45,371 nt of DNA, taken from positions 1-45,371 of IMG/VR virus record IMGVR_UViG_3300050821_000536; one strand, 5' to 3'. The DNA comes from a virus. Of the stretch, positions 1 through 45,371 are shown one piece after another (position 1 is the first letter of the stretch; the number at the start of each line of letters is the position of its first letter). Both the position numbers and the translations under genes were made by a program. The notes under the pieces are model-generated. The model saw nothing but the letters and a program-made list of their open reading frames with translations, was not told the DNA's origin and did not search any database.

Positions 1-120
1 TCTGCCGCTCGGTCTGCCGCTGGGTCTGCCGCTGAGTCTGCCGCTCGGTCTGCCGCTGAGTCTGCCGCTCGGTCTGCCGCTGGGTCTGCCGCTGAGTCTG
101 CCGCTGGGTCTGCCGCTGAG
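1..120 (+). repeat. 12-bp tandem coding repeat (left end)
   Basis: Ten exact-length 12-bp units of the form TCTGCCGCTNNG. Only the last codon varies (CGG, GGG or GAG here). In the plus frame each unit encodes Ser-Ala-Ala-X with X being Arg, Gly or Glu. The array continues the one at the right end of the window and belongs to the same gene. Its mirror-strand reading is a shadow. Confidence 0.95.
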
Positions 121-174
121 TCTGCCCAAGCGGTTCAATTTAGAAAGGTCGTCAAAAATCCTTTTGACGTTTAA
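1..174 (+). CDS. SAAX-repeat protein, C-terminal part (gene crosses the contig junction)
   Basis: This is the 3' end of the gene that starts at 44910. The frame is open from base 1: ten Ser-Ala-Ala-X repeats, then a non-repeated tail SAQAVQFRKVVKNPFDV and a TAA stop at 172-174. The bases encoding up to the Arg at 142-144 are the same as the last bases of the window, so the tail is the true C-terminus of that protein. Depending on how the overlap is resolved the full protein is about 163 residues (overlap trimmed) or up to 211 residues (ends simply joined). Both joins keep the frame, because the window's right edge ends on a codon boundary and base 1 starts one. The function is unknown. Confidence 0.8.
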   Translation, partial: SAARSAAGSAAESAARSAAESAARSAAGSAAESAAGSAAESAQAVQFRKVVKNPFDV

Positions 175-27054: not shown

Positions 27055-27262
27055 TTGGTTTCTTGATTATAGGTTTAAGTCCTTCAACCTTGGCAATAGC
27101 GCCAACGATTGCATAAAAATTCTTTGTCTTGAAGCGAATCCGTTGACCTTTATCAGTCGTTTTGACCGCTGTTATCTTGTTATTGCTTGTGCAATGCGTG
27201 ATTTTCCATTGTGGAAACTGGTTGCGCAGGGCCGCAAGCGCATGTGTTAGGGTATAACTCAT
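27047..27262 (-). CDS. small basic hypothetical protein, 71 aa
   Basis: A Lys/Thr-rich short protein with a probable three-strand fold (WKITHCTSNNKITAVKTTD) and a C-terminal Lys cluster. It overlaps the deformylase gene and the mini-A gene, so it is in the same operon. No family was recognised. Confidence 0.6.
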   Translation of the reverse strand: MSYTLTHALAALRNQFPQWKITHCTSNNKITAVKTTDKGQRIRFKTKNFYAIVGAIAKVEGLKPIIKKPNE

Positions 27263-27699
27263 GGGAATATGTTTATACCGTTCAAATGGTCAATTTCATG
27301 TTGGAAGATTCGCGCAACGCGGCCTTCTAATTTGCGCCCGTAGCCTTTACCTTTTTCGTCTGTCCAATCGGCTACAATCCAAGCGCGTCGTTTGACACCG
27401 ACAGTGAAGCCGGGTTTTGAAAGGCAACCTTCAATGCCCGTTTCAAGTTCCTCTGAATGCATCCCAATGGAAGGATTGACACAGGTCATGGGAATGCCGT
27501 GAGGTGCGAACACAAAGAAGCGCCACAGGATGCCGACTTGCGGCGCTGCCAAGCCAACACCTGATATACCATTGCGCGGCTCACGCATAATGGCATTCAT
27601 CTGCTTATAATATGGCTTAACCTGTGTCTCTATATCGGTGACAGGCTCACAACGCTTGCGCAACAGAGCCGAATCAAACGGTTCAAGTTTTAGATTCAT
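27259..27699 (-). CDS. def: peptide deformylase, 146 aa
   Basis: A metallo-hydrolase that removes the N-formyl group from new proteins. All three family motifs are intact: GVGLAAPQ (47-54), EGCLS (90-94, metal ligand Cys92) and HEIDH (134-138, ligands His134 and His138 with catalytic Glu135). The protein is shorter than most bacterial deformylases (about 165-190 residues), lacking much of the C-terminal helix, as is usual for phage forms. It may maintain processing of phage proteins late in infection. It is in an ATGA-linked run of small genes. Confidence 0.93.
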   Translation of the reverse strand: MNLKLEPFDSALLRKRCEPVTDIETQVKPYYKQMNAIMREPRNGISGVGLAAPQVGILWRFFVFAPHGIPMTCVNPSIGMHSEELETGIEGCLSKPGFTVGVKRRAWIVADWTDEKGKGYGRKLEGRVARIFQHEIDHLNGINIFP

Positions 27700-31721: not shown

Positions 31722-32276
31722 ATGAAAGAAACATCATCCGTTGCGACTGTGCCGCCAACAGTTGAGACGCAAATAAAAGAGTGGCGTGAAATCGCGTCTT
31801 GGCTTGAAAAGGCCAAGCAAACCGAAATGGATTTGCGCCAAAAAATCGCAAACTATTTCTTTCCCAAACCGTCTGAAGGCGTCAATCGCGTCATCTTCCC
31901 CGGCCATGAAGTTGTTGTTGACCACAAAATCAATCGCAAGCTTGACGAAGCGCAGCTTGACCACGTTATGGCGGAAATGCCGGAAGACTTCCGCACCCTT
32001 GGCGTGCTCATTGAATATAAACCGAAGTTATGCATGAAGGGCTTTCGCATCCTGCCAGAAGCCGCGCTTGCCATCTTCTCCCAAGCTCTGACGGAAACCC
32101 CCGGTGCGCCAACGCTCGCTATAAACAACATCACAACGGCTTTTGACCCTGTCACTGCGCCCGCTGTTGTGGATAGTCCCGCCAAGCGCGGCCCACTCGT
32201 GAACAAGGAGCTTGCCAAGGAAATCAAAGCTTCCAAAGGTTCAGTTGCGAAGAAATCCAAAAAGTCAAAGAAATGA
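31722..32276 (+). CDS. hypothetical phage protein (early gene), 184 aa
   Basis: The first rightward gene. The N-terminal helix (SWLEKAKQTEMDLRQKI) and the central region with PGHEVVVDHKINRKLD resemble a conserved small phage protein often found with recombination genes. The C-terminal 40 residues are Lys/Ser-rich (SKGSVAKKSKKSKK) and probably bind nucleic acid non-specifically. The ATG lacks a Shine-Dalgarno sequence (TACTGCCAATCCC). Function unknown. Confidence 0.7.
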   Translation: MKETSSVATVPPTVETQIKEWREIASWLEKAKQTEMDLRQKIANYFFPKPSEGVNRVIFPGHEVVVDHKINRKLDEAQLDHVMAEMPEDFRTLGVLIEYKPKLCMKGFRILPEAALAIFSQALTETPGAPTLAINNITTAFDPVTAPAVVDSPAKRGPLVNKELAKEIKASKGSVAKKSKKSKK

Positions 32277-32713
32277 CCACTACAGAAGAAACCCACATGA
32301 AGATGGTTTCAACGCTGGTTAAATCTGGTGATGAAATCATTTTGAGCCTTACGCCCGCCAAGGCGCACTTGCTGCACATGAGCATTGGTGTTGCCGGGGA
32401 AGCCGGGGAACTCTTGGACGCAATCAAGAAATGGGTTATATACGGCAAACCTTTAGACAGGGAAAATGTCATTGAAGAACTTGGTGACATTGAATTTTAC
32501 CTTCAAGGCATCCGTGAAACCCTTGACATTGCCCGCGAGCACACTCTTGCCGCCAACCTGGTGAAACTGTCCAAGCGATACGGTGAAAAGCTGCGCTATA
32601 GTGACGCAGCCGCCGTTGCCCGCGCTGACAAGGTTGTTTTACCTTTCACTTCAAACGAACAAGAAGCACGCGACCAAGCCGCCGATGCTGAAGGTCAAAG
32701 ATTTTCAGATTAA
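32273..32713 (+). CDS. MazG-like nucleotide pyrophosphohydrolase, 146 aa
   Basis: Has the MazG-type four-helix core with metal-binding acidic pairs: GEAGELLDAIKKW (37-49) and VIEELGDIEFYL (62-73), followed by NLVKLSKRYGEKL. Phage MazG proteins hydrolyse (d)NTPs or, in some cases, alarmones. Here it may also clean up unusual nucleotides. A polar tail of about 30 residues follows. It starts in an ATGA overlap with the previous gene. Confidence 0.85.
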   Translation: MTTTEETHMKMVSTLVKSGDEIILSLTPAKAHLLHMSIGVAGEAGELLDAIKKWVIYGKPLDRENVIEELGDIEFYLQGIRETLDIAREHTLAANLVKLSKRYGEKLRYSDAAAVARADKVVLPFTSNEQEARDQAADAEGQRFSD

Positions 32714-37932: not shown

Positions 37933-37965
37933 CCCGCGCTGCTCCCTTGGCAGCGCGGGTTTTTT
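37933..37965 (+). terminator. terminator before the 7-deazaguanine cassette
   Basis: A perfect 10-bp stem (CCCGCGCTGC at 37933-37942 with GCAGCGCGGG at 37950-37959), a 7-base loop and six T. It is only 13 bases before the queE start, so the cassette is expressed by read-through or from an internal promoter. This could adjust the amount of modification enzymes. Confidence 0.92.
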
Positions 37966-37978
37966 GTACCCTAAATTT

Positions 37979-38677
37979 ATGAACCTAAATAATCAAAAAC
38001 CTGAACGCCACATTCACAGGGCAGACGGCTCCCTTGAAGTGCATCACATCTTTCCAACGATACAGGGCGAAGGGCCGTTTGCAGGTATGCCCGCTATCTT
38101 CGTCCGCTTGACTGGCTGTAATCTTCAATGTCCCTTCTGTGATACCGAATACACAGAGCACAGAATTTTAACGCTGCCTGAATTGATAGTTATCAGAATC
38201 TATGGCGCGACCGCTTGTGCCAAATGGTCAAATCATAGAAAGTTGCCCATAATCGTTATTACAGGCGGGGAACCTTTCCGGCAAAATCTTGTTCCCCTTG
38301 TCACTTATCTTTCAGAAATCGGTTATCAAATACAAATTGAGACCAATGGAACTTTTGAAGTTCCTCAAATTGTATTTGATAAAGCAACGATTGTTTGCAG
38401 TCCCAAAATTGGACTTTCACCAAAACTAAAAGCGCACATCTTCAAATATGTCCTGCAAGCCGGATATATCGGTGAAGACGGCTTGCCCACATTCACGCTA
38501 GGCAATGTCAAAGCGCCCGTTGCCCGGCCACCTGAAGGCGCGGAAATCCTGATTCAACCTTTGGATGAACAGGACGCCATGAAGAACGCAGCCAACTTGG
38601 AAGCCTGTGTTCAAAGCAGTTTCAAATTCGGTTACCGCGTAGGCATCCAAATGCATAAACTATTAAACCTTGGATAA
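37979..38677 (+). CDS. queE: QueE, 7-carboxy-7-deazaguanine synthase, 232 aa
   Basis: A radical SAM enzyme that turns 6-carboxy-tetrahydropterin into CDG. Family features are IFPTIQGEGPFAG near 24-36, the cluster CNLQCPFC (Cys47, Cys51, Cys54, the radical SAM C-x3-C-x2-C spacing), ITGGEP (94-99), an ETNGT motif and the end RVGIQMHKLLNLG typical of QueE. The ATG at 37979 is preferred to a TTG 15 bases earlier that overlaps the terminator. It is followed one base later by queD. Confidence 0.95.
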   Translation: MNLNNQKPERHIHRADGSLEVHHIFPTIQGEGPFAGMPAIFVRLTGCNLQCPFCDTEYTEHRILTLPELIVIRIYGATACAKWSNHRKLPIIVITGGEPFRQNLVPLVTYLSEIGYQIQIETNGTFEVPQIVFDKATIVCSPKIGLSPKLKAHIFKYVLQAGYIGEDGLPTFTLGNVKAPVARPPEGAEILIQPLDEQDAMKNAANLEACVQSSFKFGYRVGIQMHKLLNLG

Positions 38678-38678
38678 A

Positions 38679-39134
38679 ATGTATACCTGTACCAAAAAAT
38701 ATATAGACATTCCGTTTGCCCATCGGCAACACAATCATAAAGGGCATTGCCGCTTGATTCATGGCCACAATTGGTCTTTTGAATTTGTTTTTGTAGCCAA
38801 AAAACTTGACGAATGCGGCTTTGTAATGGATTTCGGTTCTTTAAAATGGATAAAGGAATGGTTAGAATTAACTTTTGACCATAAACTTGTTTTAAATAAA
38901 GACGACCCGGCTTTAAGCTATTTGGAAAATAGCTTAATTAGACAAGCTTGCTTGCTCCCCGGTCCATTTGCTGAAATTACAAAGGTTCCAAATTGTGGTG
39001 CGGAAGGCTTGGCGCAATATGTCTTTGAACAAATAAATAAAGAATTAACCAATTTATCAAAACGTGTTACAATTCAATCTTTAACCGTTTACGAAGACAG
39101 CAAAAATTCTGCAACTTATTCTATCAATGTCTAA
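38679..39134 (+). CDS. queD: QueD, 6-carboxy-tetrahydropterin synthase, 151 aa
   Basis: Belongs to the 6-pyruvoyl-tetrahydropterin synthase family and makes 6-carboxy-tetrahydropterin from dihydroneopterin triphosphate. Zinc ligands His15, His28 and His30 (FAHRQ, then HGHNW) and the catalytic Cys24 (HCRLIHGH) are in place, with Asp67-His68 (TFDHKLVLN) and Glu139 (VYEDS). The ATG at 38679 lies one base after the queE stop. An in-frame TTG earlier is unlikely. Its stop overlaps folE. Confidence 0.93.
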   Translation: MYTCTKKYIDIPFAHRQHNHKGHCRLIHGHNWSFEFVFVAKKLDECGFVMDFGSLKWIKEWLELTFDHKLVLNKDDPALSYLENSLIRQACLLPGPFAEITKVPNCGAEGLAQYVFEQINKELTNLSKRVTIQSLTVYEDSKNSATYSINV

Positions 39135-39798
39135 TCAAACCATAAGAGAAATTCAGCGGCGCTTTCAGGAAGACGGCATTGCTTTCAAAGCCAATGATAA
39201 TATTGCGCAGCACCTTTTAGAAGGTGAAATGGAAGCAATTGAAAACGAGGTTGAGAACTGCATTGAAGATTTGCTTCAAGCCCTTATTATCGACACCCAA
39301 AGCGACCACAATACCTTTGATACACCAAAACGCATGGCAAAGATGTTTTGCCATGAAATCTTCAAGGGTCGCTTTGAAAAAGTGCCAAAGTTAACCGAGT
39401 TTCCCAATGTCAAGAAACTTGATGAAATGTATTGCACCGGCCCTATCACTATACGTTCAACCTGTGCCCATCATTTCTGCCCCATTGTGGGCAAGGCTTG
39501 GATTGGCGTAATACCCGGGGAAACTATCATTGGTCTTTCCAAGTTCAACCGGGTTGTCGATTGGATTGCTTCGCGTCCGCAAATTCAAGAAGAACTGGTT
39601 GTTCAAATTGCAGACTATATTGAAAGGGAAATGAAGCCGTTAGGTTTGGCTGTTGTTATAGAGGCAACTCACTTCTGCATGACATGGCGCGGAGTCAAGG
39701 AACCTGACACAGCAACAATGACCACGAGTGTAATGCGTGGCAGCTTCAAGGATAAGCCCGCGACTCGCGCCGAATTTCTTACCCTTATAAAGCGGTGA
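39127..39798 (+). CDS. folE: GTP cyclohydrolase I, 223 aa
   Basis: Makes dihydroneopterin triphosphate from GTP, the first step to 7-deazaguanines. Zinc ligands Cys113 and His116 (STCAHHFCPIVG) and Cys184 (THFCMTWRGV) are present, with the substrate-binding run GLSKFNRVVDWIASRPQIQ and the end MRGSF. It overlaps queD by eight bases and dpdA by four, showing one operon. Length is normal for the family. Confidence 0.95.
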   Translation: MSNQTIREIQRRFQEDGIAFKANDNIAQHLLEGEMEAIENEVENCIEDLLQALIIDTQSDHNTFDTPKRMAKMFCHEIFKGRFEKVPKLTEFPNVKKLDEMYCTGPITIRSTCAHHFCPIVGKAWIGVIPGETIIGLSKFNRVVDWIASRPQIQEELVVQIADYIEREMKPLGLAVVIEATHFCMTWRGVKEPDTATMTTSVMRGSFKDKPATRAEFLTLIKR

Positions 39799-40703
39799 AA
39801 ATATACATGGCCGGGCTTTATACGAACGGGACAGGCGACCGCCAAGGACGCCTGTTTAATGAGTTGATGAATGACCACGAACGCAATGTGGTCAATAACG
39901 TCAAGTATCTGCTTGAATCTTATCACTATATTAAAGGTGACAATAAAATTGAAGTGATAGAACGCGACAAAGCTCGCGTGTTCTTGGACAGCGGCGCTTT
40001 TTCCGCTTTCACCCTTGGCAAGACAATAGACCTAAATGCTTACTGTGATTTCATCCACAAGCATCTTGACTGCATTGAACAGCCTGCGGTGCTTGATGCC
40101 ATCGGTGACGCCTTCAAGACATATCAGAATCAAACCTTAATGGAACAGCGCGGCATTCGCCCAATTCCGTGTTTTCACTTCGGTGAGGATGAACGCTACA
40201 TGGAACATTACATGGCCAATTATGATTACATTGCCCTTGGTGGCGTGGCCTTGGCGGGAAGCATGGCTATTGTCAAATGGTTGGATAGACTGTTTGAAAA
40301 ATACATTTGCGGAAGTGATGGAATACCAAAGGTCAAGATTCACGGCTTCGCCATTACTTCAGTTCCCCTGATGCTGCGTTATCCTTGGTATAGCGTTGAT
40401 TCTTCCATGTGGGTGCAAGCTGCCTTTCGTGGTGAAATCCTAGTTCCTGAAATTGGCCGTGTGGCCATATCCAACAACAGCCCGACCCGCAAGGAAGACG
40501 GCGGAAAACATATTGCCACACTGTCAGAGATTGAGCGCCAAGCCGTGCTAGGCCACATAGAGAAGCGGGGTTTTGACGCTGCCCGGCTTTGGGGCGTCTA
40601 TATATCCCGTTGGGTTTTCAATTTAGCTATATTCAATGAAATGAACATTGAATGGGAGAATAAAGTTAAGCACTTTCAGGCAGAGCAAATTTCTATATTT
40701 TAA
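39795..40703 (+). CDS. dpdA: DpdA-like DNA-guanine transglycosylase, 302 aa
   Basis: A relative of tRNA-guanine transglycosylase that swaps guanine in DNA for a 7-deazaguanine base. Typical motifs are FLDSGAFSAF (Asp65 region), the segment ALGGVALAG near 147-155, and HGFAITSVPLMLRYPWYSVD (183-202) with the probable nucleophile Asp202. The start is GTG overlapping the folE stop; an ATG 12 bases on is an alternative. Together with queE-queD-folE it forms a DNA modification cassette as in other phages. The target sequence is not predictable here. Confidence 0.9.
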   Translation: MKIYMAGLYTNGTGDRQGRLFNELMNDHERNVVNNVKYLLESYHYIKGDNKIEVIERDKARVFLDSGAFSAFTLGKTIDLNAYCDFIHKHLDCIEQPAVLDAIGDAFKTYQNQTLMEQRGIRPIPCFHFGEDERYMEHYMANYDYIALGGVALAGSMAIVKWLDRLFEKYICGSDGIPKVKIHGFAITSVPLMLRYPWYSVDSSMWVQAAFRGEILVPEIGRVAISNNSPTRKEDGGKHIATLSEIERQAVLGHIEKRGFDAARLWGVYISRWVFNLAIFNEMNIEWENKVKHFQAEQISIF

Positions 40704-40886: not shown

Positions 40887-41852
40887 ATGAATATCCTTCA
40901 ATCTTTAAAGTTTGTGCAAGGGGCAGTTGCCAAGAAAGATTTTGTACCTGCCCTGACTCACTTCCGCATTAAAAACAACACGGTAAAAGCCTTCAATGGT
41001 AATATGGCTATATGCGGCCCTATTGCTGTAAACTTGGATATATCACCTAATGCAGAAAAACTAACCAAAGTAATTGCTGCTTGTAACGATACTGTAACCC
41101 TGCACATGAACGACAAGGGTAAGCTGGTTGTATGTAGCGGTGACTTCAAAGCTTTTATCAATTGTGACAACGTTGACAACTTTCCCAATATAGTACCAAC
41201 AGGGGAAAGAATCACATTGAAGGAACCGTTGATTCCGGCCCTGACTTACCTTGAACCGTATATTGCGGAAGATGCAAGCCGTCCTTGGTCATGCGGTATT
41301 CTATTCGATCAAGAAAGCGCCTTCGCCACTAACAACATTGTATTGGTTCAACATTGGCTTGGCTTCAAGTTTCCCATGCGCGTCAACATTCCCCGCGCCG
41401 CCGTGGAAGCAATCCTTGGTATCGGTGAAAATCCCATTGCCCTGCAATTCGGGGAGAATCGCCTAAGCTTTCATTTCACGGAAGGGCGTTGGTTATCCAC
41501 ACAGTTGCTAGAGGCAACTTGGCCGGATGTAGCAACGCTATTGAACACGCCTTCAGAGGAAAAACAGAAGCCGTTTCCAAAAGGTTTTTGGGATGCGTTG
41601 GAAAGGCTCTTGCCCTTCTGTGATGATTTAGGCCGCTGTTACCTGAAGCCTGATTGCATGGCTTCGCGGGACAATGCGGATTTAGTCGGTGAAAATATTG
41701 AAATCAATCTAGGCATAGAAGGTATATTCAATGCCCGGCATCTGTCCAATTTGAAAACAATTGCTGACACCATTGCATTTTCTGCCTATCCCGCGCCCGT
41801 TCCCTTCTATGGGAAACGCAGCCGGGGTATAATTGTGGGCATTCGCAAATGA
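40887..41852 (+). CDS. sliding clamp-like protein (DnaN-type fold), 321 aa
   Basis: Resembles phage beta-clamp-like proteins. The N-terminal domain has KFVQGAVAKKDFVPALTHFR, then AFNGNMAICGPI, with strand-rich repeats across the length and a C-terminal FYGKRSRGIIVGIRK. It is about 40 residues shorter than bacterial DnaN. It precedes and overlaps by four bases the family B polymerase gene, so a processivity role is likely. No motif proves it, and fold comparison would be needed. Confidence 0.7.
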   Translation: MNILQSLKFVQGAVAKKDFVPALTHFRIKNNTVKAFNGNMAICGPIAVNLDISPNAEKLTKVIAACNDTVTLHMNDKGKLVVCSGDFKAFINCDNVDNFPNIVPTGERITLKEPLIPALTYLEPYIAEDASRPWSCGILFDQESAFATNNIVLVQHWLGFKFPMRVNIPRAAVEAILGIGENPIALQFGENRLSFHFTEGRWLSTQLLEATWPDVATLLNTPSEEKQKPFPKGFWDALERLLPFCDDLGRCYLKPDCMASRDNADLVGENIEINLGIEGIFNARHLSNLKTIADTIAFSAYPAPVPFYGKRSRGIIVGIRK

Positions 41853-43837
41853 GAGAAGACGCGGTAGGATTGTTTTGGGATGACACGCCTGCGCCGCGCC
41901 TGACAGCGCCGCCGCAACCCAAGCGTGAGCCACCACCGCGCACATGGGAACAGCCTGACTATTTGCCCGGCCTAGCTGAAGCCCGCGCATGGGTGCCGCC
42001 GTTGTTCACAGACGCAGAGTTAGAGGCTGAACGCTTGCATCGTGTACCTTTATTTTTTGACATAGAGATTTTCAAAAATTATTTTTTGGCGTCCTTCCTG
42101 TCCCTTGAATCAGGCAAGCTTGTAATCATAGAGCTTTTTCCCGGCGGTGTCATAAATCCAAAATTGCTTTGGATGTTGCAAAACTTCCTTATCATTGGGT
42201 TCAATAGTGATTTCTTTGACATTCCAATTGCAACACTGGCTATTAACGGTGCCAGTTGCGAAGCTTTGAAAGATGCAACCAATGAAATCATCATTCTACA
42301 AGTGCAACCTTGGATGATGTTGCGCCAAAAGAAAATCAAGCCGCTAAAGATTAACCACATTGATATAATCGAAGTTTGCCCGCTTCATGCGTCCTTGAAA
42401 ATCTATGGCGGTCGCCTGCATAGCCCAAAGATGCAGGAACTTCCATTCCACCATGAAACGATCTTGACGGATGACCAAATTTGCATTGTTCGCCATTACA
42501 ATTATAATGATTTATTAAACACCAAATTAGTATTCGGGGAAGTGCGTCAACAGATTGAGCTTCGCACCCAAATGTCCCTGATGTATGGCGTTGACTTGCG
42601 GTCAAAGTCAGATGCGCAGATTGCGGAAGCCGTCATCAATCACGAGTTAACCCGCGTGAACGGCAAGAAGCCGCAACGTCCTGAAATTCCACCCGGTACA
42701 GCCTTTGCTTATAAAGTGCCGTCCTATGTGCGCTATGAAACGCAGGTTTTACAGGACGCATTGGCTATTGTGACACAAGCCAGCTTTATCATTGGCGAAA
42801 GCGGGGCACCTGCCATGCCGGAAGAGGTAGCGGCCTTGCAAATCAGGCTTGGCAATGGCGTGTATCAAATGGGGATTGGTGGCCTGCATTCCAATGAAAC
42901 TTGCAGCACTCACTTTGCCGGGGAAGGCATCGCTTTAATTGACCGGGATGTATCTAGTTATTATCCCGCTATCATACTTAACCAAGGATTATATCCGCAA
43001 CACTTGGGCATAGGGTTCCTGCAAGTTTACAAGACATTGGTTGAACGCAGGCTTTTAGCCAAGAAAAACAAGAACAAGATTGAAGCTGACACGTTAAAGA
43101 TTGTGGTCAACGGCTTGTTTGGCAAACTTGGCTCTAAGTGGTCAACAGTGTTTGCGCCTGACTTGATGGTGCAAGTTACTATAACGGGACAATTGGCGCT
43201 GCTTATGCTTGTGGAAAGATTGGAGCTTGCCGGGATTCCTGTAATCAGCGCCAACACTGACGGTGTGGTTGTTAAGTGCCCACAGATTCAACAGGGCACT
43301 TATGCCGCTGTTGTTGCGCAATGGGAAAAAGACACCGGCTTTAATACGGAAGAAACCAAATATGTCGGCATCTTTTCGCGGGATGTGAACAATTATATTG
43401 CCGTGAAAGAAGACCTGAAGATAAAGGTTAAAGGCGTCTATGCGGAAAAGGGAAGCGCGGGCGATTCCGTCTTGTCCAAGAATCCAACCAATTTGATTTG
43501 CAACGATGCTGTCATTGCGTTCCTGACAAAAGGTGTACCGATACAAGAAACAATTCGGGCTTGCCGTAATTTGTCGCGCTTCATTTCGGTGCGAACCGTC
43601 AAGGGCGGCGCAGTCAAGGCCGGGGAATATTTGGGCAAGGCAATTCGCTGGTACTACGCGACAGGGTGCGACGGGGAAATAATTTATGCAGAGACAGGGA
43701 ACAAAGTTGCCATGACAGACGGTGCAAAGCCTTGCATGGAACTGCCCCAAGAGTTTCCTTCAGACGTTGACTTTGAATGGTATGAACGCGAAGCGTTTTC
43801 CATCCTCAAAGAAATTGGTTACCCGGTTGGTGTTTAG
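41849..43837 (+). CDS. family B DNA polymerase with 3'-5' exonuclease, 662 aa
   Basis: A compact replicative polymerase. Exonuclease motifs are FFDIEIF (Asp71, Glu73), IIGFNSDFFDIP (Asp121/124) and HYNYNDLL (Tyr217-x3-Asp221). Polymerase motif A is DVSSYYPAII (Asp367), motif B KIVVNGLFG (Lys417, Asn421, Gly425) and motif C ANTDGVV (Asp471), where the usual first Asp of Asp-Thr-Asp is Asn469. An extra Pro-rich 40 residues lies at the N-terminus. It works with the clamp-like protein just upstream and the primase-polymerase encoded on the other strand. Confidence 0.88.
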   Translation: MREDAVGLFWDDTPAPRLTAPPQPKREPPPRTWEQPDYLPGLAEARAWVPPLFTDAELEAERLHRVPLFFDIEIFKNYFLASFLSLESGKLVIIELFPGGVINPKLLWMLQNFLIIGFNSDFFDIPIATLAINGASCEALKDATNEIIILQVQPWMMLRQKKIKPLKINHIDIIEVCPLHASLKIYGGRLHSPKMQELPFHHETILTDDQICIVRHYNYNDLLNTKLVFGEVRQQIELRTQMSLMYGVDLRSKSDAQIAEAVINHELTRVNGKKPQRPEIPPGTAFAYKVPSYVRYETQVLQDALAIVTQASFIIGESGAPAMPEEVAALQIRLGNGVYQMGIGGLHSNETCSTHFAGEGIALIDRDVSSYYPAIILNQGLYPQHLGIGFLQVYKTLVERRLLAKKNKNKIEADTLKIVVNGLFGKLGSKWSTVFAPDLMVQVTITGQLALLMLVERLELAGIPVISANTDGVVVKCPQIQQGTYAAVVAQWEKDTGFNTEETKYVGIFSRDVNNYIAVKEDLKIKVKGVYAEKGSAGDSVLSKNPTNLICNDAVIAFLTKGVPIQETIRACRNLSRFISVRTVKGGAVKAGEYLGKAIRWYYATGCDGEIIYAETGNKVAMTDGAKPCMELPQEFPSDVDFEWYEREAFSILKEIGYPVGV

Positions 43838-44909: not shown

Positions 44910-45371
44910 ATGAAAACTGAATTACTAAATCTGACACCGAAAGAGTTTTGCAGAATCACGGAAGCTTGTTCAGACGGCATCCGTTTTGCCTTGAAATATA
45001 AAACCATGAAATCGGTTTGGGAACACTGTGAACGTGTTGACTGGCTTTGTTGGATATTGAACACGCTTGACGTTCCTGCCGATGAAAAAGCTTGCCGCTT
45101 ATATATGATTTGGTGCGCACGCAATACACCGTTAGCCGATGGGCGCACAACATTGGCTTTGCTGACTGAGCAACGAAGCCTTGACGCTTTGAGCGTTGCT
45201 GAACGTTTTGCAAATGGTCAAGCTACCCTTGAAGAATTGGATGCCGCTCGGTCTGCCGCTCGGTCTGCCGCTTGGTCTGCCGCTGAGTCTGCCGCTCGGT
45301 CTGCCGCTGGGTCTGCCGCTGAGTCTGCCGCTGGGTCTGCCGCTGAGTCTGCCCAAGCGGTTCAATTTAGA
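44910..45371 (+). CDS. SAAX-repeat protein, N-terminal part (runs off the right end)
   Basis: The ATG lies four bases after the previous stop. The first 110 residues form a non-repeated domain with TPKEFCRITEACSDGIRFAL and VWEHCERVDWLCWIL, a type of small phage domain known without assigned function. Then come Ser-Ala-Ala-X repeats (X = Arg, Trp, Glu, Gly), starting at Asp-Ala-Ala-Arg near residue 111. The frame ends exactly at the last base and continues at base 1. Total length is about 163 residues if the overlap is trimmed. Repeat number may vary between phage molecules. Confidence 0.8.
   Translation, partial: MKTELLNLTPKEFCRITEACSDGIRFALKYKTMKSVWEHCERVDWLCWILNTLDVPADEKACRLYMIWCARNTPLADGRTTLALLTEQRSLDALSVAERFANGQATLEELDAARSAARSAAWSAAESAARSAAGSAAESAAGSAAESAQAVQFR
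45240..45347 (+). repeat. 12-bp tandem coding repeat (right end)
   Basis: Nine 12-bp units, the first degenerate (GATGCCGCTCGG), the others TCTGCCGCTNNG with CGG, TGG, GAG or GGG at the end. The third unit is the only one encoding Trp. The right-hand units match the left-end array in order. Confidence 0.95.
45274..45371 (+). other. terminal direct overlap with 47-144
   Basis: The last 98 bases equal positions 47-144 exactly. Upstream of that the match continues with a few differences because both sides are in the 12-bp array. This is the sign of a circular assembly or of terminal redundancy. The unique genome length would be about 45.23 kb. Confidence 0.9.

What the first reader, a model, noticed from the sequence alone, without database searches (positions are those of the whole stretch)
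37979..40703. 7-deazaguanine DNA modification cassette without QueC
queE, queD, folE and dpdA are adjacent with one-base gaps or overlaps, but no QueC (which would turn CDG into preQ0) was found in the window. Known phages with DpdA carry dPreQ0, archaeosine-type dG+ or other derivatives, and some are reported with the carboxy form (dCDG). Without QueC this phage may insert CDG directly, or it may depend on host QueC. The first option would be a chemically distinct, negatively charged DNA base. The terminator just before the cassette may limit its dose.
Basis: partly seen in the sequence, partly recalled or inferred. Interest (0 to 1): 0.75.

Follow-up and report, generated by a model that had tools for sequence, protein, structure and literature searches.

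The report
Phage DNA-modification cassette that lost QueC
A complete phage genome keeps the genes to make and insert a modified guanine but has cleanly lost the last synthesis enzyme, QueC, and the pocket of its inserting enzyme has changed as in other phages that lack QueC, so it probably puts the unfinished, negatively charged base CDG into its DNA, which needs a chemical test.

Summary
Observation confirmed. queE (37979-38677), queD (38679-39134), folE (39127-39798) and dpdA (39795-40703) form a tight four-gene run with conserved catalytic residues. No QueC, Gat-QueC or SGGxDS motif exists in the record. The contig ends overlap by an exact 98 bp, closing a 45,227-bp circle, so the absence is not a fragment effect. 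In 77 of 78 relatives holding queE and queD, queC lies between them; here one base does.

New evidence bears on host supply versus direct CDG use. The DpdA loop homologous to the TGT loop around the 7-substituent reads GG[ML]V in 93 of 97 dereplicated QueC-bearing cassettes, but is altered in 13 of 13 QueC-less ones (window GGVA). QueC-less lineages include Bipper and Typha, whose host is reported to have no Q-pathway genes. Most other QueC-less cassettes carry a different enzyme (nitrilase-like, methyltransferase, or a 141-aa unknown); the window has none.

Best reading: DpdA inserts CDG itself (dCDG). Host QueC remains the main rival. Phylogenetic independence is only partly resolved and L116 (QueC plus GGVA) is an exception. 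Bipper's missing QueC, and CDG as its possible base, were published in 2019; I found no published mention of the loop correlation. No nucleoside was measured.

The parts
37979..38677 (+). queE, 7-carboxy-7-deazaguanine (CDG) synthase, 232 aa; CxxxCxxC, GGEP and QxHK motifs intact
   Evidence: phrog_2076 1.2e-46; TIGR04322 2.5e-28, below its cut-off; shares the columns invariant in 10 phage QueEs
38678..38678 (+). single base between queE stop and queD start, where queC lies in relatives
   Evidence: sequence; QueC between QueE and QueD in 77 of 78 relatives
38679..39134 (+). queD, 6-carboxytetrahydropterin synthase, 151 aa; CxxxHGH present
   Evidence: phrog_2389 1.1e-34, PTPS 8.9e-27
39127..39798 (+). 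folE, GTP cyclohydrolase I, 223 aa; zinc-ligand motif CxHH and distal Cys present
   Evidence: PF01227 3.7e-50; alignment with six phage FolEs
39795..40703 (+). dpdA, DNA guanine transglycosylase, 302 aa; D65, D101, H128, D202 conserved
   Evidence: phrog_887 2.1e-65; model pLDDT 91.8 matches TGT structures, prob 1.00; conserved residues
40233..40259 (+). DpdA residues 147-155 (ALGGVALAG), loop homologous to TGT GGLAV; relatives read T[LI]GGMV[PG]
   Evidence: TGT loop function PMC3660597
40708..40884 (+). 58-aa ORF between dpdA and clamp; no assigned function
   Evidence: sequence
40887..41852 (+). DNA polymerase processivity factor (clamp); context conserved with relatives
   Evidence: phrog_947 5.7e-65; synteny
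41849..43837 (+). DNA polymerase; context conserved with Queuovirinae-like phages
   Evidence: phrog_1252 6.7e-199; 54% identity to phage JG054
35703..37379 (+). DNA helicase upstream of cassette (same position in relatives)
   Evidence: phrog_16 2.3e-96
37933..37965 (+). intrinsic-terminator-like hairpin (11 pairs, 9 G-C) plus T tract before queE
47..144 (+). left copy of exact 98-bp end overlap; closes the genome
45274..45371 (+). right copy of exact 98-bp end overlap

Best explanation
This is a DpdA-type 7-deazaguanine cassette that has lost queC. FolE, QueD and QueE make 7-carboxy-7-deazaguanine (CDG) from GTP (inferred from intact homologues). With no QueC, CDG is not converted to preQ0. 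DpdA, a TGT-fold enzyme with its catalytic residues intact but a remodelled 7-substituent loop (T147A, M151V, V152A, with S98A and G186A nearby), swaps guanines in finished phage DNA for CDG itself, giving dCDG, a base with a negative charge in the major groove. The likely benefit is resistance to restriction enzymes (inferred from other phage 7-deazaguanines). Shown here: gene content, absence of QueC from a closed genome, the exact position of the loss, and the loop change with its recurrence. Inferred: enzyme activities, the base inserted and the benefit.
For: Closed genome without QueC. QueC lies between QueE and QueD in 77 of 78 relatives; one base here. V152 is V in all 90 nearest DpdAs, T147 is T or S in all 90, M151 is M or L in all 90; the window alone differs at all three. 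The bacterial enzyme 7ui4 also reads TMGGMVP. Dereplicated full cassettes, motif-selected loci excluded: altered loop in 13/13 QueC-less and 4/97 QueC-bearing (Fisher p about 9e-14, ignoring kinship). Loci fetched with the nitrilase that sits in some QueC-less cassettes: 0 of 17 have QueC, and all but one of the clearly read loops are non-canonical. Genome-collection loci: four QueC-bearing ones read GGMV. In TGT the loop's Leu231/Ala232 peptide flips for preQ1 and Val233Gly enlarges the pocket (PMC3660597). Phage 9g DpdA in E. coli, where CDG is an intermediate, gave dPreQ0 but no detectable dCDG (PMC6884629 Table 1), so CDG use would need altered specificity. Bipper and Typha lack QueC on whole records and their host is reported to lack the pathway genes. 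No nitrilase, methyltransferase or amidotransferase was found among the window genes scanned.
Against: No nucleoside was measured and the host is unknown; most proteobacterial hosts could supply QueC. The QueC-less phages with a known QueC-less host (Bipper, Typha) belong to another lineage with a different loop (GKLL). L116 has the same GGVA loop and G186A yet carries QueC, and L106 has GGVA with Gat-QueC, so GGVA is not a strict CDG signature. The tree forces only 4 independent pairs; the loop goes the same way in about 2 and the opposite way in almost none (not significant). The window DpdA departs at 13 near-invariant columns against at most 5 in any relative, which could also mean relaxed constraint. 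No new basic residue appears in the loop to bind a carboxylate.
Confidence: 0.52

Rival explanations
1. Host-supplied QueC. The phage boosts flux to CDG with its own FolE, QueD and QueE, the host's QueC turns CDG into preQ0, and DpdA inserts preQ0 as in CAjan.
For: Many hosts have QueC. Phages with dpdA alone do get modified from host precursors (MED16 and 7-11, PMC8306585 and PMC6884629). The same idea was raised for Vid5 (PMC6266253).
Against: Phages of QueC-bearing hosts such as E. coli and Pseudomonas keep QueC in this module. A DpdA still using preQ0 should keep the GG[ML]V loop; the window is the only one of 91 close DpdAs to lose it. QueC-less Bipper and Typha live in a host reported to lack the pathway.
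Confidence: 0.27
2. A different final base. An unrecognised phage or host enzyme converts CDG (for example to an amide, an ester or decarboxylated 7-deazaguanine) before or after insertion, or DpdA takes preQ1 or queuine from the host.
For: Most other QueC-less cassettes carry an extra enzyme: nitrilase-like, class I methyltransferase or the 141-aa gp4. The window loop ALGGVAL resembles TGT AVGGLAV. Several window ORFs have no assigned function.
Against: No such enzyme was found in the window's cassette or among its scanned ORFs; preQ1 or queuine use would make the phage QueD and QueE pointless unless the host completes the pathway.
Confidence: 0.14
3. Decaying, non-functional cassette: queC was the first gene lost and the rest is drifting.
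For: The window DpdA has more departures at conserved columns than any relative (13 against at most 5).
Against: All four ORFs are full length with overlapping junctions and intact catalytic motifs. Several DpdA departures lie at the pocket while the catalytic residues are untouched. No pseudogene remnant of queC is visible.
Confidence: 0.05
4. Assembly artefact: queC is present in the real phage but dropped from the metagenomic contig.
For: It is a virus record of uncultivated origin and no reads were available.
Against: The junction is an exact gene-to-gene join with 1 nt between stop and start, the ends close as a circle, and the independent DpdA loop change fits a real loss.
Confidence: 0.02

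Closest known systems
Queuovirinae-type queE-queC-queD-folE-dpdA-clamp-polymerase module (CAjan, NP1, JG054; also Stenotrophomonas phage ply2008005c)
   Same: Same gene order, same neighbours (helicase upstream, clamp and polymerase downstream); DpdA 45-51% identical
   Different: queC (or gat-queC) is missing between queE and queD, and the DpdA loop GG[ML]V is GGVA
Mycobacterium phages Bipper and Typha (QueC-less DpdA cassettes)
   Same: folE, queD, queE and dpdA without QueC on the whole record; altered DpdA loop
   Different: Gene order dpdA-gp4-queD-queE-folE; loop GKLL; an extra 141-aa gene (gp4) in the queC slot, absent from the window; about 30% DpdA identity
Bacterial tRNA-guanine transglycosylase (TGT)
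   Same: Fold (Foldseek prob 1.00, TM about 0.55) and catalytic Asp arrangement; the loop ALGGVAL resembles AVGGLAV
   Different: About 10% identity; acts on tRNA, whereas DpdA acts on DNA (family knowledge)
IMG/VR QueC-less cassettes with a nitrilase-like or methyltransferase gene (L111, L113, L200, L158, L197, L204)
   Same: QueC absent, DpdA loop altered
   Different: They carry an extra enzyme next to dpdA; the window carries none

Membership tests
Phage DpdA (DNA guanine transglycosylase) | Sequence match to DpdA family profile | tested here: met
   phrog_887 2.1e-65 over residues 1-291
Phage DpdA (DNA guanine transglycosylase) | TGT-type barrel with catalytic Asp residues at strand ends | tested here: met
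   model pLDDT 91.8; best PDB matches are TGT; D65, D101, D202 invariant
Phage DpdA (DNA guanine transglycosylase) | Inserts a 7-deazaguanine into DNA | not testable with these tools
   needs enzyme assay or mass spectrometry
preQ0 (dPreQ0/dG+) phage modification pathway | FolE, QueD and QueE encoded | tested here: met
preQ0 (dPreQ0/dG+) phage modification pathway | QueC or Gat-QueC encoded | tested here: not met
   no PF06508 match, no PP-loop motif, closed genome
preQ0 (dPreQ0/dG+) phage modification pathway | DpdA loop GG[ML]V, as in 93 of 97 QueC-bearing cassettes (found here, not a published criterion) | tested here: not met
   window reads GGVA
QueC-less (CDG-level) DpdA cassette, as proposed for Bipper | FolE, QueD, QueE and DpdA without QueC in the whole genome | tested here: met
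   Bipper and Typha likewise
QueC-less (CDG-level) DpdA cassette, as proposed for Bipper | dCDG in virion DNA | not testable with these tools
   needs LC-MS/MS
Queuovirinae | Replication-gene homology and module synteny | tested here: inconclusive
   polymerase 54% to JG054 but the portal protein is nearest to 42-kb Variovorax, Pseudomonas and Stenotrophomonas phages; no taxonomy analysis done

The most novel reading that the evidence does not exclude
Phage 7-deazaguanine cassettes without QueC are a distinct class. Each subclass has recoded the DpdA loop that contacts the 7-substituent and, except in minimal members like this window, has put its own enzyme in or near the queC slot (nitrilase-like hydrolase, methyltransferase, or gp4). 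They would write CDG or new CDG-derived bases into DNA, and the loop would be a readable code for which base is inserted.
Probability: 0.35. Interest if true: 0.82.

Novelty: new variant of a known kind. Interest (0 to 1): 0.62.

Why it matters
If right, phages carry a negatively charged guanine analogue made by stopping a known pathway one step early, and a short DpdA loop would predict from sequence which base a phage inserts. That makes the open question of how DpdA chooses its base testable with one enzyme and one E. coli deletion strain. The linked nitrilase-like and methyltransferase genes point to DNA bases that may not have been described.

Tried and rejected
The search for related loci with the window DpdA alone matched nothing in viral contigs; an alignment was needed. 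Record MF417872 (7AX_2) is not in the collections. Cui et al. 2023 (NAR) is not held, so dCDG and the enzyme DpdL could not be checked there. HMM and profile comparison of DpdA with E. coli TGT did not align past the DSG motif, so the loop correspondence rests on the shared GG motif, the order of catalytic residues and the fold match. An apparent S98A/T147A signature shared by window and Bipper was rejected as a QueC marker: actinophage DpdAs with QueC also have A98, and A147 is common in other QueC-bearing DpdAs; only position 152 and the loop as a whole hold up. MED16 DpdA proved too distant to compare at the loop. The idea that L116's QueC is dead because it lacks the zinc cysteines was rejected: many intact cassettes have that zinc-less type. 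Bipper gp4 has no Pfam, PHROG or significant PDB match.

Full report
**What is there.** Four genes run on the + strand from 37979 to 40703: queE, queD, folE and dpdA. Spacing is a 1-nt gap, an 8-nt overlap and a 4-nt overlap. QueE keeps CxxxCxxC, GGEP and the C-terminal QxHK; QueD keeps CxxxHGH; FolE keeps its zinc motif; DpdA keeps D65, D101, H128 and D202, invariant in all 91 close DpdAs. The DpdA model is confident (pLDDT 91.8) and its best PDB matches are tRNA-guanine transglycosylases.

**QueC is absent from a complete genome.** PF06508 finds nothing in the record while ringing in 12 of 14 control genomes. No SGGxDS-type motif exists in six frames. The record carries no circular label, but its ends overlap exactly by 98 bp (45274-45371 = 47-144). 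Most of this is a 12-bp tandem repeat, yet the overlap runs about 20 bases beyond it into unique sequence, and the joined ORF reads on to a stop. The closed length is 45,227 bp.

**The loss is exact.** Relatives from Stenotrophomonas, Microcystis, Rhizobium, Vibrio, Pseudomonas, Escherichia and Aminobacter phages share the order queE-queC-queD-folE-dpdA-clamp-polymerase, most with the helicase upstream. Of the 90 relatives fetched, 78 hold both queE and queD, all 78 hold a QueC homologue, and in 77 it lies between the two. In the window one base lies there.

**The DpdA loop changed.** In the 90 nearest DpdAs, residue 147 is T or S, 151 is M or L and 152 is always V; the window reads A, V and A. 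A bacterial DNA-guanine transglycosylase of known structure, 7ui4, also reads TMGGMVP (weak match). In TGT the equivalent loop is where the Leu231/Ala232 peptide flips to accept preQ1 and where Val233Gly enlarges the pocket for queuine (PMC3660597). In the window model the loop follows strand 145-149, on the same face as the catalytic residues. The correspondence with TGT is by motif and fold, not by a significant sequence alignment.

**It recurs in other QueC-less cassettes.** Mycobacterium phages Bipper and Typha lack QueC on their whole records and read GKLL, while actinophages with QueC read GG[LMQ]V. A wider set was assembled from three further scans of viral contigs. Among full cassettes dereplicated at 90% and without the loci selected by motif, 13 of 13 QueC-less ones have an altered loop, against 4 of 97 with a solid QueC (Fisher p about 9e-14, which ignores kinship). 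Three further cassettes have only a weak QueC-like hit: two altered loops, one canonical. Whole-record searches confirmed the absence of QueC, several of them in large records of 48 to 115 kb. On a tree built without the loop columns, QueC changes 13 times and the loop 12 times, but supported branches force only 4 independent pairs; in these the loop goes the same way in about 2 and the opposite way in almost none, too few for significance.

**Replacement enzymes.** In QueC-less cassettes the queC slot or its neighbourhood often holds something else, tied to the loop type: a nitrilase-superfamily protein (PF00795 on L200; Glu-Lys-Cys conserved), a class I methyltransferase, or the gp4 family of 141 aa. 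The nitrilase-like family was never seen in a QueC-bearing locus; the methyltransferase was seen once (L199). As a test I searched viral contigs with the nitrilase alone: all 17 loci carry dpdA, none carries QueC, and the clearly read loops are GGVA, GGMA, GGML or GGTA with one GGMV, L316. Several of these records were already in the set, so this is only partly independent. Four QueC-bearing loci from bacterial genome contigs read GGMV, two of them near-identical. The window has none of these partners among the genes scanned.

**How it most likely works.** FolE, QueD and QueE produce CDG; DpdA with its altered pocket exchanges guanine for CDG in DNA. The enzyme steps are inferred from homology. 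Support for a need to change the enzyme: phage 9g DpdA in E. coli, where CDG is a pathway intermediate, gave dPreQ0 but no detectable dCDG (PMC6884629 Table 1). The main rival is host QueC. It is weakened by the loop change and by QueC-less phages in a host reported to have none of the genes, but not excluded, because the window's own host is unknown.

**Limits.** L116 has QueC and the same GGVA loop, in a cassette without a detected folE; L106 has GGVA with Gat-QueC. The loop change shows altered constraint, not which base is used. The window DpdA is also the most divergent at conserved columns overall (13 against at most 5). No nucleoside was measured.

**Known and new.** Hutinet et al. 2019 noted Bipper as missing only QueC and possibly carrying CDG (PMC6884629). 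From my own knowledge, dCDG was reported in phages by Cui et al. 2023 (NAR, gkad657); that paper is not held here, so neither this nor its CDG decarboxylase DpdL was checked, and gp4 or another partner could be DpdL. The searches run here turned up no paper on a DpdA loop that tracks QueC or on nitrilase-like genes in these cassettes; most subscription papers are not covered.

Noticed in passing
L111, L113, L200, L308-L324: A nitrilase-superfamily gene with conserved Glu-Lys-Cys sits near dpdA in 17 of 17 IMG/VR loci that encode it, none with QueC: a possible new 7-deazaguanine tailoring or synthesis enzyme.
   Followed up: partly
L158:7037-7813, L204:4261-5112, L197, L122, L154, L165: A class I methyltransferase (Methyltransf_23) lies near dpdA in QueC-less cassettes, most with a shortened DpdA loop (LG-VAG); it might esterify the CDG carboxylate.
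   Followed up: partly
L095:2047-2469 (Bipper gp4) and homologues in L097, L142-L147: A 141-aa protein without Pfam, PHROG or significant PDB match occupies the queC slot in the GKLL-loop cassettes and was never seen in QueC-bearing loci; candidate CDG-converting enzyme.
   Followed up: partly
QueC of L001, L002, L003, L042, L058, L116 and others: Many phage cassette QueCs lack the C-x8-CxxCxxC zinc motif and instead end in SHT.YDG.YPP...DPLVLRA: a zinc-less QueC subfamily.
   Followed up: no
L107, L169, L315, L320, L321: Some phage cassettes carry two DpdA-like genes, possibly for two bases or a heterodimer.
   Followed up: no
window 1-126 and 45242-45353: A 12-bp tandem repeat encodes an (S-A-A-x) stretch in the ORF spanning the contig ends; the repeat probably hid the circular closure.
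   Followed up: yes
window 32273-32710: MazG-like pyrophosphatase in the early region, and a peptide deformylase at 27259-27699 on the other strand.
   Followed up: no
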